Shown: positions 1 to 6,501 of the stretch, piece after piece | How positions within the stretch are numbered: the stretch's first letter is position 1 | Layout of the letters: each line of letters begins with the position of its first letter | Source: Blautia sp. | GTDB lineage: Bacteria > Bacillota > Clostridia > Lachnospirales > Lachnospiraceae | DNA length: 8,272 nucleotides | Direction: 5' to 3' | Assembly (NCBI GenBank): GCA_017515945.1 | Contig: JAFWDX010000161.1 | Coordinates: 1 to 8,272, forward strand | The notes under the pieces: model-generated | Told to the model about the DNA's origin: nothing | The model's input: only the letters and a program-made list of their open reading frames with translations | The model's database searches: none | Position numbers and translations under genes: made by a program

Positions 1-116
1 CAAGCTCCTTCGTAACTGTTCAGTCGCAAGCTCCTTCGTAACGGTTCAGTCACAAGCTCCTTCACAGTTACGAAGGCCAGGCGCAGTCTCTTTCGCAATA
101 GGAGCGCGCCTGGCCA
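1..116 (+). repeat. Rearranged MITE copy with a 26-bp tandem array, downstream of thiI
   Basis: Two consecutive 26-bp units (12-37 and 38-63) begin GTAACTGTTCAGTC and end CAAGCTCCTTC; they differ at two positions. Bases 1-11 are the tail of a further unit, so the array continues beyond the left edge. It is followed by ACAGTTACGA and a hairpin with a perfect 10-bp stem (GGCCAGGCGC at 75-84, GCGCCTGGCC at 106-115). The same modules occur at 1384-1528 and 6404-6484. The right terminal repeat is not intact; AACAGTTTTAC at 116-126 may be its remnant and overlaps the thiI stop codon. The hairpin follows thiI in its transcript but has no U-tract, so a terminator role is unproven. Confidence 0.7.
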
Positions 117-122
117 ACAGTT

Positions 123-1325
123 TTACGGCTGAACCGGAGCCGTATTGCTGACCTCGATCACTTCCGTTGAAGAAAGCGCCTGTTCCATCAGCGCGTCTAT
201 CACATCCGCCAGTTTCCCTTCTGACTTCTGAATGACATTCAACAGCGGCTTTGTAACCGGATGTTTTGCCACAAAGATCGTACAGCAGTCCTCATAGGGC
301 AGGATCGACGTGTCAAAGGTTCCGATCCGGCGGGACAGCTCCACGATCTCCTGCTTGTCAAAACCGATAACCGGCCGGAAAACAGGCAGCGTACAGACCT
401 CGTTGGTCACGGCCAGGCTCTGGATCGTCTGGCTGGCAACCTGTCCGATACTTTCTCCTGTGATCAGTCCCAGACAGCGGTCTTTTTTGGCCAGGATCTC
501 CGCGATGCGCATCATATACCTGCGCATGATGATCGTCAGCTCGTCATGGGGACATTTCTCATAAATGGCCAGCTGGATATCCGTAAAATTGACGACATAC
601 AGGCGGATCGGTCCGCTGAAGCGGGATACAAGCCGTGCCAGGTCCACCACCTTCTGTTTTGCCCGCTCACTCGTATATGGCGGAGCATGAAAGTAGACTG
701 CTTCAATCTCCACGCCTCTCTTGGCGATCATATATCCCGCTACCGGAGAATCGATCCCTCCCGACAGCAGCAGCATGGCCTTCCCGTTCGTCCCCACAGG
801 CATACCGCCCGCGCCGCGGATCGTGCGGGAATATACATAGATCCTGTCCCGGATCTCGATGCTGATCGTCAGCTCAGGATCATGTACGTCGACCCTGGCC
901 TGCGGGAACGCATCCAGGATGGCCTCTCCGGCCCGGGCACTGACATCCATGGATCCCACGGGATAGCTTTTTCTCGCGCGTCTGGTATATACCTTGAATG
1001 TCCCGTTGTAGTCCGGGTGGACCTGCCTCATATAATCAGTCACATCCTGACAGGTCTGCTCCAGGCCGTTGTCCTCATAGATCATCACCGGGCAGACATA
1101 AACGATGCCGAATACCCGTGTCAATGCAGTAACAGCTTCTTCGTAATCATACTCATCCGGGCAGTATACATAGACCCTGCCCTGCTCCCGGACCACGCGG
1201 AAGTCTCCTTCCACATTGTCCAGTGCCAGTTCCATCTGCTTTACAAGGGCCTGTTCGAACACATAGCGGTTCTTTCCCTTGATGGCGATCTCAGCGTATT
1301 TGATCAAAAAGGCATGAAATGTCAT
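123..1325 (-). CDS. thiI: tRNA 4-thiouridine synthetase ThiI (tRNA sulfurtransferase)
   Basis: ThiI adenylates U8 of tRNA and replaces its oxygen with sulfur, giving 4-thiouridine, a near-UV sensor; in many bacteria it also takes part in thiamine thiazole synthesis. The 400-residue cytosolic protein has an N-terminal ferredoxin-like region, a THUMP domain (about residues 60-165) and a PP-loop ATP pyrophosphatase domain with SGGIDS at 188-193. A Cys pair (PYEDCCT) lies at 347-348. It ends there: the C-terminal rhodanese domain of E. coli ThiI is absent, as in Bacillus subtilis ThiI, which receives sulfur from a dedicated desulfurase encoded next to it. That matches the gene immediately upstream here. 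The start is the ATG at 1325, preceded by AAAGGA five bases away; an in-frame GTG at 1340 lies upstream of this ribosome binding site and would consume it. Family assignment is secure. Confidence 0.95.
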   Translation of the reverse strand: MTFHAFLIKYAEIAIKGKNRYVFEQALVKQMELALDNVEGDFRVVREQGRVYVYCPDEYDYEEAVTALTRVFGIVYVCPVMIYEDNGLEQTCQDVTDYMRQVHPDYNGTFKVYTRRARKSYPVGSMDVSARAGEAILDAFPQARVDVHDPELTISIEIRDRIYVYSRTIRGAGGMPVGTNGKAMLLLSGGIDSPVAGYMIAKRGVEIEAVYFHAPPYTSERAKQKVVDLARLVSRFSGPIRLYVVNFTDIQLAIYEKCPHDELTIIMRRYMMRIAEILAKKDRCLGLITGESIGQVASQTIQSLAVTNEVCTLPVFRPVIGFDKQEIVELSRRIGTFDTSILPYEDCCTIFVAKHPVTKPLLNVIQKSEGKLADVIDALMEQALSSTEVIEVSNTAPVQP

Positions 1326-1330
1326 ATCGA

Positions 1331-1336
1331 TCCTTT
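1331..1336 (-). promoter_or_regulatory. Ribosome binding site that sets the thiI start
   Basis: AAAGGA on the minus strand is followed by five bases (TCGAT) and the ATG at 1325. The alternative GTG start at 1340 lies upstream of this site and has no comparable purine-rich stretch in front of it, so the shorter protein is preferred. Confidence 0.75.
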
Positions 1337-1340
1337 CCAC

Positions 1341-1369
1341 ATTATACTAGAGGCTCTAAATACGTGGAA
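1341..1369 (-). promoter_or_regulatory. Possible promoter just upstream of thiI
   Basis: A perfect TATAAT (minus strand, 1346-1341) lies 17 bases downstream of TTCCAC (1369-1364), a weak -35. Transcription would start near 1334-1336, leaving a leader of only about ten bases that barely keeps the ribosome binding site. A promoter here would make sense because the desulfurase gene seems to end in a terminator, but the tight spacing argues against it. The -35 lies in an arm of a split palindrome. Confidence 0.3.
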
Positions 1370-5140: not shown

Positions 5141-5177
5141 AAAAAAGGGGTCAGCTGCCTTATGCACAGCCTCCCCC
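5141..5177 (-). terminator. Intrinsic terminator after dnaJ
   Basis: On the minus strand GGGG-GA-GGCTG, a nine-base loop, CAGCT-GA-CCCC, then six T. GGGG pairs with CCCC and GGCTG with CAGCT (one G-U); the GA facing GA between them can form tandem sheared G-A pairs. It lies 16 bases after the dnaJ stop and probably ends the chaperone operon. Confidence 0.8.
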
Positions 5178-5193
5178 GTATTACGTATTACGT

Positions 5194-6369
5194 TCATTCT
5201 TCAAATGTTTCTTCGAACGTTTCTTTGATCTTGTCCCTGAAGCGCCTTTTCTTTTTTTCAGGCTTTTCTGTCCCGGCGGGATCCGTTCTTCCTGATACGA
5301 TATCGTCGTAATGGCGCAGTGCTTCCTTAGCCTCTGAGGTCAGATTAGTCGGCACCTGAACGACAAAGGTGACATAATGATCACCCCGCATGTTCTTATT
5401 GCGGAGCGAAGGAACGCCCTTCCCCTTCAGACGGATCCTGGAATCCGTCTGGGTCCCGGGCTTGACCTGATAGGCCACTTCCCCGTCCACTGTACTGAGC
5501 CGTACCTCGCCGCCCAATGCGGCCTGCGCAAAGGTAAGCGGAGCCGTGGAGTAGATGTCCATGTCATTGCGCTGGAATATCGGATGTCTGGCGACGTTGA
5601 CCTCGACCAGCAGATCTCCTCTGGGACCGCCGTTGCGTCCCGGCTCACCCTTGTCACGGATCCGGATGCTCTGCCCGTTATCAATCCCGGCCGGTATGGA
5701 AACCTGGATCTTTTTTCTGGAGGAGGTATAACCGGTGCCCCGGCAGCTCGTACATTTATCCTTGATGACCTTGCCGGTACCGCCGCACTCAGGGCAGGCC
5801 TGCACATTTCTCACCATGCCGAAGATGGACTGCTGCGTATAAACGATCTGTCCCTCTCCGTGACATCTCGTACAGGTCACAGGGGATGTCCCCGGCTTGC
5901 AGCCGGTGCCGTGACAGGTGGTGCAGGTATCCTTGAGAGAGATCTCCAGCTCCTTGTCTACACCAAACACGGCCTCCTCAAAAGTGATATTCACCCTGGC
6001 ACGCAGACTGGCGCCGCGCATCGGGCCGTTTGAAGCCGCCCTGCTCCTGCCGCCGCCAAAGAAATCGCCGAAAAGATCGCCGAATATATCGCTGAAATCC
6101 GCGCCGCTGAAATCAAATCCACCGGCCCCCGGCCCGCCCTGCTCGAACGCGGCATGGCCGAACTGGTCATACTGACGCCTTTTTTCCGGATCACTCAGGA
6201 TACCATAGGCTTCCGTTGCCTCTTTAAACCTGGCCTCCGCCTCTTTGTCTCCGGGATTTACATCCGGATGGTATTTCTTTGCCAGCTGGCGGTAGGCTTT
6301 TTTCAGTGCCGCTTCATCGGCGTTTCTGTCTACGCCGAGGACCTCATAGTAGTCTCGTTTATCTGCCAT
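5194..6369 (-). CDS. dnaJ: Chaperone protein DnaJ (Hsp40)
   Basis: Co-chaperone that binds unfolded clients and stimulates the DnaK ATPase. The 391 residues have the full type I layout: J domain (1-70) with the essential HPD at 34-36, a Gly/Phe-rich linker (about 78-110), a zinc-binding domain with four CxxCxGxG repeats (cysteines at 149/152, 166/169, 192/195 and 206/209), then the client-binding C-terminal domains (about 220-345). The tail is strongly basic (EKKKRRFRDKIK) and ends in ETFEETFEE, encoded by a near-duplicated 12-base unit. The ATG at 6369 is preceded by AGGGAAAAGGAAT. It lies downstream of dnaK, but 282 bases away and beyond a likely partial terminator, so dnaJ may be expressed below dnaK. 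A terminator follows its stop. Confidence 0.98.
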   Translation of the reverse strand: MADKRDYYEVLGVDRNADEAALKKAYRQLAKKYHPDVNPGDKEAEARFKEATEAYGILSDPEKRRQYDQFGHAAFEQGGPGAGGFDFSGADFSDIFGDLFGDFFGGGRSRAASNGPMRGASLRARVNITFEEAVFGVDKELEISLKDTCTTCHGTGCKPGTSPVTCTRCHGEGQIVYTQQSIFGMVRNVQACPECGGTGKVIKDKCTSCRGTGYTSSRKKIQVSIPAGIDNGQSIRIRDKGEPGRNGGPRGDLLVEVNVARHPIFQRNDMDIYSTAPLTFAQAALGGEVRLSTVDGEVAYQVKPGTQTDSRIRLKGKGVPSLRNKNMRGDHYVTFVVQVPTNLTSEAKEALRHYDDIVSGRTDPAGTEKPEKKKRRFRDKIKETFEETFEE

Positions 6370-6403
6370 ATTCCTTTTCCCTGTTTTTGGTGCAAAATGA
6401 CTT

Positions 6404-6484
6404 GTAACTGTTCAGTCACAACCTCCTTTACAGTTACGAGGCCAGGCGCAGGCTCCTTTCGTCGCATTGGAAGAGCGTCTGGCC
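6404..6484 (+). mobile_element. Truncated MITE copy in the dnaK-dnaJ gap
   Basis: Begins GTAACTGTTCAGTCACAACC and continues with the ACAGTTACGA module, then the GGCCAGGCGC...GCGTCTGGCC hairpin (6440-6484). It closely matches the reverse complement of the 1384-1528 copy, but stops at GGCC: the right-hand module and right terminal repeat are missing. Directly after it comes an AGGAGCTGTC end of a different repeat. On the transcribed minus strand the loop of the left-end hairpin reads AAAGGAGGT, a perfect ribosome-binding sequence, but with no credible gene after it. Confidence 0.7.
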
Positions 6485-6486
6485 TT

Positions 6487-6501
6487 AGGAGCTGTCGCGA
6501 A
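6487..6501 (+). repeat. Lone AGGAGCTGTC repeat end
   Basis: AGGAGCTGTCGCGAA matches the left arm of the palindrome at 2785-2799 at 13 of 15 positions. No matching inverted copy was found nearby, so it may be the remnant of an element whose other half was lost together with the right end of the adjacent MITE. Confidence 0.35.

What the first reader, a model, noticed from the sequence alone, without database searches (positions are those of the whole stretch)
1..6501. One IS66-like MITE family occupies every intergenic gap of the cluster
Copies or fragments with GTAACTGTTCAGTCA ends occur at 1-116, 1384-1528, 2836-3032, 3979-4063, 5040-5073 and 6404-6484: every gap between the six genes plus the stretch after thiI, and none inside a gene. 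The ends start GTAA and two copies carry 8-bp duplications, as IS66 transposition produces. Such density in a housekeeping cluster implies high activity, a strong bias for intergenic DNA, or selection for the hairpins in mRNA. The family assignment rests on end sequence and duplication length only.
Basis: partly seen in the sequence, partly recalled or inferred. Interest (0 to 1): 0.72.

Follow-up and report, generated by a model that had tools for sequence, protein, structure and literature searches.

The report
Folded IS66-type MITEs fill gene gaps
This bacterium (probably a Blautia) carries roughly 500 copies, by extrapolation, of a short gene-less jumping-DNA element, with a copy or piece in every gap between the genes of this window, and a model of its hairpin layout matched 73 of 299 genomes searched in its family; the elements are likely moved by an ISBst12-group (IS66-family) transposase, of which no copy with matching ends was found in this genome.

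Summary
In detail: all six copies are where stated, two with 8-bp target duplications (8/8, 7/8). They belong to a family of about 500 copies (94 in 493,336 sampled bases outside the window; 90 of 100 midpoints intergenic). The window is dense (Poisson P about 0.006, uncorrected) but not remarkable among 518 contigs. Duplications are 8 bp (26 of 56 perfect; almost none at other lengths). The IS66 idea holds in refined form: ends and duplications match ISBst12-type elements (4 in the genus, 5 of 6 plasmid elements tested, published ISDge4), not the GTAAGCG type. No partner with these exact ends was found; 6 of 12 element-rich genomes have no PF03050 match, and none of 19 PF03050 loci in the others showed such ends. 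New: a model of the layout (end, hairpin 1, linker, hairpin 2, terminal hairpin) matches 73 of 299 family genomes. Hairpins 1 and 3 co-vary strongly while sequence turns over, and the right end co-varies with an internal copy of itself. Derivatives of 30-64 bp keep ends and 8-bp duplications. Verdict: MITEs with an unusual conserved fold whose function is open.

The parts
1..116 (-). Copy truncated by the contig start: terminal unit, part of hairpin 2, and a 26-bp direct duplication of the end (1-26, 27-52)
   Evidence: (families D1, D4)
1376..1383 (+). Target site duplication GATTCCAC, left
   Evidence: 8/8
1384..1528 (+). Full 145-bp element
   Evidence: (40 copies of at least 138 bp listed at 92-100% identity, itself included; 40 of 481 candidates scored)
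1384..1398 (+). Left terminal inverted repeat GTAACTGTTCAGTCA
1399..1423 (+). Hairpin 1 (GCACCTCGCA-TTTAC-TGCGAGGTGC)
   Evidence: covariation
1447..1492 (+). Hairpin 2 (GGCCAGGC..GCCTGGCC)
   Evidence: a hairpin at this place in relatives
1495..1528 (+). Hairpin 3: right end paired with an internal inverted copy of its first 8 bp; also exists alone as the 34-bp element
1529..1536 (+). Target site duplication GATTCCAC, right
2836..3032 (-). 197-bp chimeric copy with a piece of another repeat (about 2851-2911); flanks ATTGTGCG/ATTTTGCG
3979..4063 (-). 85-bp truncated copy carrying the 21-22-bp insert in hairpin 1 (insert read by eye); flanks match 3/8
5040..5073 (+). 34-bp micro-element; flanks match only 3/8
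6404..6484 (-). Truncated copy: terminal unit plus hairpin 2
1337..1616 (.). Second repeat family (hairpin AGAGGCTCTAAATACGTGGAA..) into which the 1384-1528 copy inserted
   Evidence: (I12)

Best explanation
These are non-autonomous miniature elements (MITEs), likely moved in trans by a transposase of the ISBst12 group of the IS66 family, with an 8-bp duplication of the target at many copies. Shown: copy number, ends, 8-bp duplications, a shared hairpin layout in Lachnospiraceae, strong covariation of hairpins 1 and 3, and short derivatives that keep ends and duplications. Inferred: the transposase binds the common GTAAC..TCAG end; hairpins 1 and 3 are kept as paired DNA because the transposition complex, or a folded single strand, needs them; intergenic enrichment comes mainly from loss of insertions that break genes or ribosome-binding sites; and the 30-64-bp forms arise mostly in place by deletion between short repeats such as ACAGTTAC or TGCGC. 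Untested: whether the transposase moves these elements, and whether they act on mRNA.
For: Duplication length: among 56 two-ended full copies with both flanks, 26 are perfect and 36 at least 7/8 at length 8; at lengths 3-7 and 9-14 perfect matches are 0 except 3 (length 3) and 1 (length 7). 97 of 203 ends led to a partner end with a duplication of at least 7/8 (60 distinct elements); a control with the duplication shifted by 3 gave 3 hits. Ends: IS66-type elements of the same genus end in GTAACTATTCAG (L147), GTAACAGTTCAG (L153), GTTACTTTTCAC (L154) and GTTACTGTTCAC (L155), all with 8/8 duplications. Elements in relatives show end types of the same kind: GTAACAGTTCAG, GTAACTATTCAG, GTTACTGTTCAC. 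On plasmids ISGst1, ISGka4 and three more of six tested have left ends GTAACTATTCAGCC, GTAACTACTTAGG or GTAACTGCTCAGCAGG, one annotated transposase each and 8/8 duplications. PMC12898284 (passages read) gives ISDge4, ISBst12 group, ends GTGACTACTCAGCA/GTAACTGCTCAGCA and an 8-bp repeat. Fold: 17 pairs, 96.7% of cells paired against 80.7% shuffled, 95 double changes against 24.1, 0 of 500 shuffles; repeated on 21 other elements. Spread: 73 of 299 family genomes.
Against: No autonomous element with these exact ends was found; a scan of the loci held at that time for end pairs 500-3500 bp apart with duplications (506 pairs) found only three IS66 elements that had been fetched by their transposase. 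6 of 12 element-rich genomes, four of them listed as 90-99% complete with at most 3% contamination, have no PF03050 match, and a seventh only a match below the cut-off in an IS256-type frame. None of the 19 PF03050 loci of element-rich genomes showed GTAAC-type ends with duplications. The IS66 elements read here do not, by eye, show hairpins 1 and 3 at their ends, so the fold is not simply inherited from an IS end. The 2,141-bp end pair in the Clostridium fessum genome proved to be two unrelated fragments (2/8) around ordinary genes. 28 of 39 rows in A1 were picked by a pattern that fixes the left end and hairpin-1 loop, and the second set was found with a model that contains the structure.
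Confidence: 0.65

Rival explanations
1. The elements are MITEs moved by another transposase family that also makes 8-bp duplications; the GTAAC..TCAG likeness to ISBst12-group ends is convergence.
For: 6 of 12 element-rich genomes lack PF03050 and the PF03050 loci of the others lack such ends; no partner IS with the same hairpins was found.
Against: Nine IS66-type elements from several phyla share the end type and the 8-bp duplication, and end types vary in the same way in elements and IS. IS256-type PF00872 was absent from 3 of 9 genomes tested, and in some others only a remnant or weak match. Other transposase families were not searched for.
Confidence: 0.22
2. The elements persist because their transcripts are structured RNA modules selected in mRNAs; mobility is secondary.
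For: Strong covariation. In co-directional gaps the order hairpin 1 to hairpin 3 follows transcription in 38 of 55 copies here (window included) and 42 of 65 in relatives.
Against: One-sided changes are rare against double changes (15 against 95), unlike what I recall for RNA-selected helices. No Rfam family fits. Duplications tend to begin with GA in element orientation (G 36 of 60, A 36 of 60), so strand-biased targets may explain the orientation bias. No preference for start codons beyond chance (p 0.25 and 0.49).
Confidence: 0.15
3. Arm complementarity is kept by template switching that copies one arm onto the other (palindrome correction), with no selection on the fold.
For: Few one-sided intermediates; the 21-22-bp insert occurs in either arm of hairpin 2, as if the hairpin could flip.
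Against: Layout, the hairpin at position 2 and the apical pairs of hairpin 1 persist across genera through large sequence turnover; correction alone would not keep them.
Confidence: 0.25

Closest known systems
ISBst12 group of the IS66 family (ISGst1, ISGka4 by likeness of ends; ISDge4 by the paper)
   Same: Ends of the type GTAACT[AG]NTCAG and 8-bp target duplications.
   Different: The elements have no gene, are about 131-145 bp, and carry hairpins 1-3 that the IS ends read here lack (by eye).
Bacterial MITEs in general (MITEPsy1/2 in PMC3189936, passages read; Correia elements, recalled)
   Same: Short, gene-less, terminal inverted repeats, high copy number, intergenic.
   Different: One multi-hairpin layout with compensatory changes, matched by a model in 72 of 298 genera searched in one family, and derivatives of 30-64 bp still flanked by 8-bp duplications.
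REP/BIME/REPIN elements with RAYT transposases
   Same: Many intergenic hairpins, mosaic copies.
   Different: Here there are clear 8-bp duplications and IS66-type ends; REPs are described as 20-40-bp palindromes, GTAG- or CGTC-tagged (title and start of abstract of PMC3733652 in a search listing).
Three-frame (tnpABC-like) IS66
   Same: GTAA start and 8-bp duplication (L138; three frames).
   Different: Ends GTAAGCG, not GTAACTGTTCAG.

Membership tests
MITE | Short element without a gene, multi-copy | tested here: met
   145 bp; about 500 copies extrapolated
MITE | Terminal inverted repeats and target site duplication | tested here: met
   GTAACTGTTCAG ends; 8-bp duplications
MITE | Autonomous partner with the same ends | tested here: inconclusive
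   None with exact ends in this genome or the loci fetched; the genome is 79% complete and only PF03050 and, in part, PF00872 were searched
ISBst12 group of IS66 (as source of the ends) | End motif GTAACT[AG]NTCAG | tested here: met
   literature passage
ISBst12 group of IS66 (as source of the ends) | 8-bp target duplication | tested here: met
ISBst12 group of IS66 (as source of the ends) | A transposase of the group that moves the element | not testable with these tools
   PF03050 absent from 6 of 12 element-rich genomes; needs a bench assay
REP/RAYT elements | GTAG or CGTC tag; no target duplication (the latter recalled) | tested here: not met
   8-bp duplications present; ends start GTAAC
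Known RNA family (Rfam 15) | Covariance-model match | tested here: not met
   0 at gathering score in the window; the only E<=1 match in six loci lies off the element

The most novel reading that the evidence does not exclude
A pan-Lachnospiraceae superfamily of mobile DNA whose transposition depends on a conserved three-hairpin fold, with a DDE transposase reading folded single-stranded ends rather than two plain inverted repeats, and whose 30-64-bp terminal hairpins move on their own: among the smallest mobile units known.
Probability: 0.2. Interest if true: 0.85.

Novelty: new variant of a known kind. Interest (0 to 1): 0.62.

Why it matters
MITEs are normally defined by their two ends alone. 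Here the interior layout is preserved through large sequence turnover in many genera, and the right end co-varies with an internal copy of itself. That makes it directly testable whether an IS66-type transposase needs folded DNA, how elements a few tens of bases long arise or move, and what gene-gap hairpins do in Lachnospiraceae. In practice, copies also sit at contig ends and likely break genome assemblies.

Tried and rejected
Three-frame IS66 as source: rejected on ends (GTAAGCG in L138). The IS66 locus of this genome (C266): no GTAACTGTTCAG ends. IS66 loci of element-rich genomes: no GTAAC-type ends with duplications in 19 of 19. IS256 as source: absent from three of nine genomes, and no clean ends found at L360. 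A 2,141-bp end pair in the Clostridium fessum genome: two fragments, 2/8 duplication, ordinary genes inside. Start-codon targeting, suggested by the window: not significant. Rfam: nothing on the element. Plasmid and phage collections with the 145-bp copy: no match. Terminator scan: none of the 12 sites found lies in a copy. Literature: in the listings of ten searches (the last showed 8 of 29 papers) I saw no description of these elements; only open PMC papers are held, and subscription papers and ISfinder were not searched.

Rows dropped: 56 full elements reduced to 42 by similarity, 39 of them aligned (three with extra inserts left out). For A2, 21 of 29 loci were used: seven had no duplication-bearing element and one was spurious. 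Six of 142 plasmid records with a match, and not the one phage record, were tested for ends. The 57 'full' rows include some overlapping pairs from neighbouring ends, and its 39 'micro' rows include truncated full copies.

Errors in my notebook: entry 2 says the insert sits in 'either arm of either hairpin'; in the copies re-read it sits in either arm of hairpin 2 and in the 3' arm of hairpin 1. Entry 5 gives 13 one-sided changes; the table sums to 15. Entry 5's 'not with left TIR' holds for A1 only. Entry 3's duplication score for L233 is wrong; by eye I see none there.
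Full report
What is in the window. The window is one whole contig (C505) of a 2,625,352-base draft genome, 518 contigs, 79% complete. Its six genes, all on the minus strand, fit dnaK (cut), dnaJ, prmA, rsmE, a nifS-type cysteine desulfurase and thiI; these names are from my reading of the translations, not from a family search. The genus is probably Blautia: contig C68 of relative G003, 9,956 bases with an element at 293-437, has the same length and element position as a record titled 'uncultured Blautia sp.'.

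How many and where. Exact GTAACTGTTCAG: 430 hits, control 0. In 100 contigs taken at every fifth number (493,336 bases) a profile found 94 copies, 0.191 per kb, about 500 per genome by extrapolation, about 1.9% of bases; the reversed sequence gave 0 hits. With the window, 90 of 100 copy midpoints are intergenic while 78% of the sequence is predicted coding (home-made gene finder, approximate). In the 100 sampled contigs 56 of 160 gaps of at least 60 bp hold a copy. Copies are somewhat clumped: about 54 contigs without a copy against 44.3 expected. The window has 6 copies against 1.58 expected (P 0.0056), unremarkable among 518 contigs.

Transposition signature. Comparing left and right flanks at lengths 3 to 14, only length 8 stands out: 26 of 56 perfect. 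A second scan found 60 duplication-bearing elements in 592,611 bases: 21 of 145 bp, 5 of 166, 16 of 34-35, 3 of 30, one of 64, and 14 of other lengths. In element orientation the duplication tends to start with GA (G 36 of 60, A 36 of 60). Six of 60 empty sites lie inside a second repeat family whose matches cover 2,478 of the 592,611 bases; the window copy at 1384-1528 is one of them.

Which family. The only PF03050 locus of this genome, C266, has no such ends. In relatives of the genus, four IS66-type elements end in GTAACTATTCAG, GTAACAGTTCAG, GTTACTTTTCAC and GTTACTGTTCAC with perfect 8-bp duplications; a fifth, with three frames on one strand, ends in GTAAGCG. The other 25 of 30 loci examined gave no convincing ends. 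L153 has one large frame; L147's gene is broken; L154 and L155 have one large frame each plus a smaller upstream frame that I did not identify. The transposases of L153, L154 and L155 pass the PF03050 cut-off and match NCBI's IS66 model below its cut-off; DUF6444 is above its cut-off in two of the three. Of six plasmid relatives tested, five have GTAAC-type ends with 8/8 duplications, including annotated ISGst1 and ISGka4. PMC12898284 (passages only) places ISDge4, ends GTAACTGCTCAGCA and GTGACTACTCAGCA with an 8-bp repeat, in the ISBst12 group. Against this, no partner with the exact ends exists in what I could read; 6 of 12 element-rich genomes have no PF03050 match and a seventh only one below the cut-off; and none of the 19 PF03050 loci of element-rich genomes showed GTAAC-type ends with duplications.

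A family-wide layout. A 145-base consensus matched 10 of 64 genomes of the genus, this one included. A covariance model found matches in 73 of 299 genomes of the family, 72 of 298 genera, this genome included. The layout is: left end; hairpin 1; linker; hairpin 2, in the common form a long stem, a short apical hairpin and a bulge of about 7 bases; hairpin 3, made of the right end and an internal inverted copy of it. I read the layout in the aligned elements, not in every model match.

Covariation. On 39 elements, 17 pairs of hairpins 1 and 3: 96.7% of cells paired (80.7 shuffled), 95 double changes (24.1 shuffled), covariation 0.444 (0.140 shuffled, 0 of 500; slid controls at most 0.059). Left end against right end: 3 double changes, 0.116 against 0.101, but 28 of these rows were picked with the left end fixed. 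On 21 other elements found by the model, left end free: hairpins 1 and 3 give 42 double changes, 0.361 against 0.088, though the number of further pair types is not beyond shuffles (52 of 500). There the right end co-varies with the internal copy (12 double changes in hairpin 3) and also with the left end (6 double changes, 0.147 against 0.061). The model contains the structure, so this second set is not fully independent. Hairpin 2 was checked by folding only: 30 of 60 middle segments have z below -2, median -2.0. Four whole elements fold far better than shuffles as single-stranded DNA (z -6.5 to -8.9); the 34-bp unit only modestly (z -2.3).

DNA or RNA. Double changes outnumber one-sided ones 95 to 15. 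If the helix acted in RNA I would expect more G-U intermediates (recalled expectation, not a test). Copies are oriented with transcription in 38 of 55 and 42 of 65 co-directional gaps, which fits an RNA role or a strand-biased target. In relatives 28 of 65 copies lie within 9 bp of, or overlap, the upstream stop codon, and 33 of 65 lie 20-49 bp before the next start, as if coding sequence and ribosome-binding sites were spared. Closeness to start codons is not beyond chance in either set.

Short derivatives. 34-35-bp units are the right terminal hairpin alone (10 of 16 with perfect duplications, the other 6 with 7/8), 30-bp units the left end plus half of hairpin 1 (2 of 3 perfect) (the scan required at least 7/8). 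Deletion in place between short repeats is the simplest account. Independent mobility is not excluded: G027 gave only short or truncated forms (3 matches), and standalone 34-bp units share variants rare in full copies, for example G at position 18 in 21% of 48 against 3% of 58, though older age could do the same.

Verdict. The finding is real. The family is a MITE superfamily with ISBst12-type ends, a new variant of a known kind because of its conserved, co-varying hairpin layout and its very short derivatives.

Noticed in passing
window 1337-1383 and 1537-1616: A second intergenic repeat family (hairpin AGAGGCTCTAAATACGTGGAA..) with 23 match bins (window included) in 501,608 bases; 6 of 60 duplication-bearing MITEs inserted inside it.
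   Followed up: partly
window 3047-3210: A third repeat, 53-bp arms 85% complementary, 9 match bins (window included) in the sample; a 62-bp piece of it lies inside the MITE copy at 2836-3032.
   Followed up: partly
window 1-52: Two head-to-tail 26-bp repeats of the element end; the contig begins inside this copy.
   Followed up: no
window 3979-4063; L096 3562-3727; L112 2036-2201; L111 5406-5571: A 21-22-bp insert (CACCGAAGGCGT.CCTTGG.AG) appears in the 3' arm of hairpin 1 or in either arm of hairpin 2; its two variable bases differ in a compensating way between the two hairpins (read by eye).
   Followed up: partly
L331 and L332 at 1501: Duplications AGTAACTG and GGTAACTG: these copies inserted into sequence like the element's own end.
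   Followed up: no
L253, L255, L312 (whole contigs of CAMWHJ01): Contigs of this Lachnospiraceae MAG end about 50 bases into an element, so it probably breaks assemblies.
   Followed up: no
L159, L160 (G228): A genome of another genus carries 28-bp and 62-bp elements with ends like GTAACTGTTCAG.
   Followed up: no
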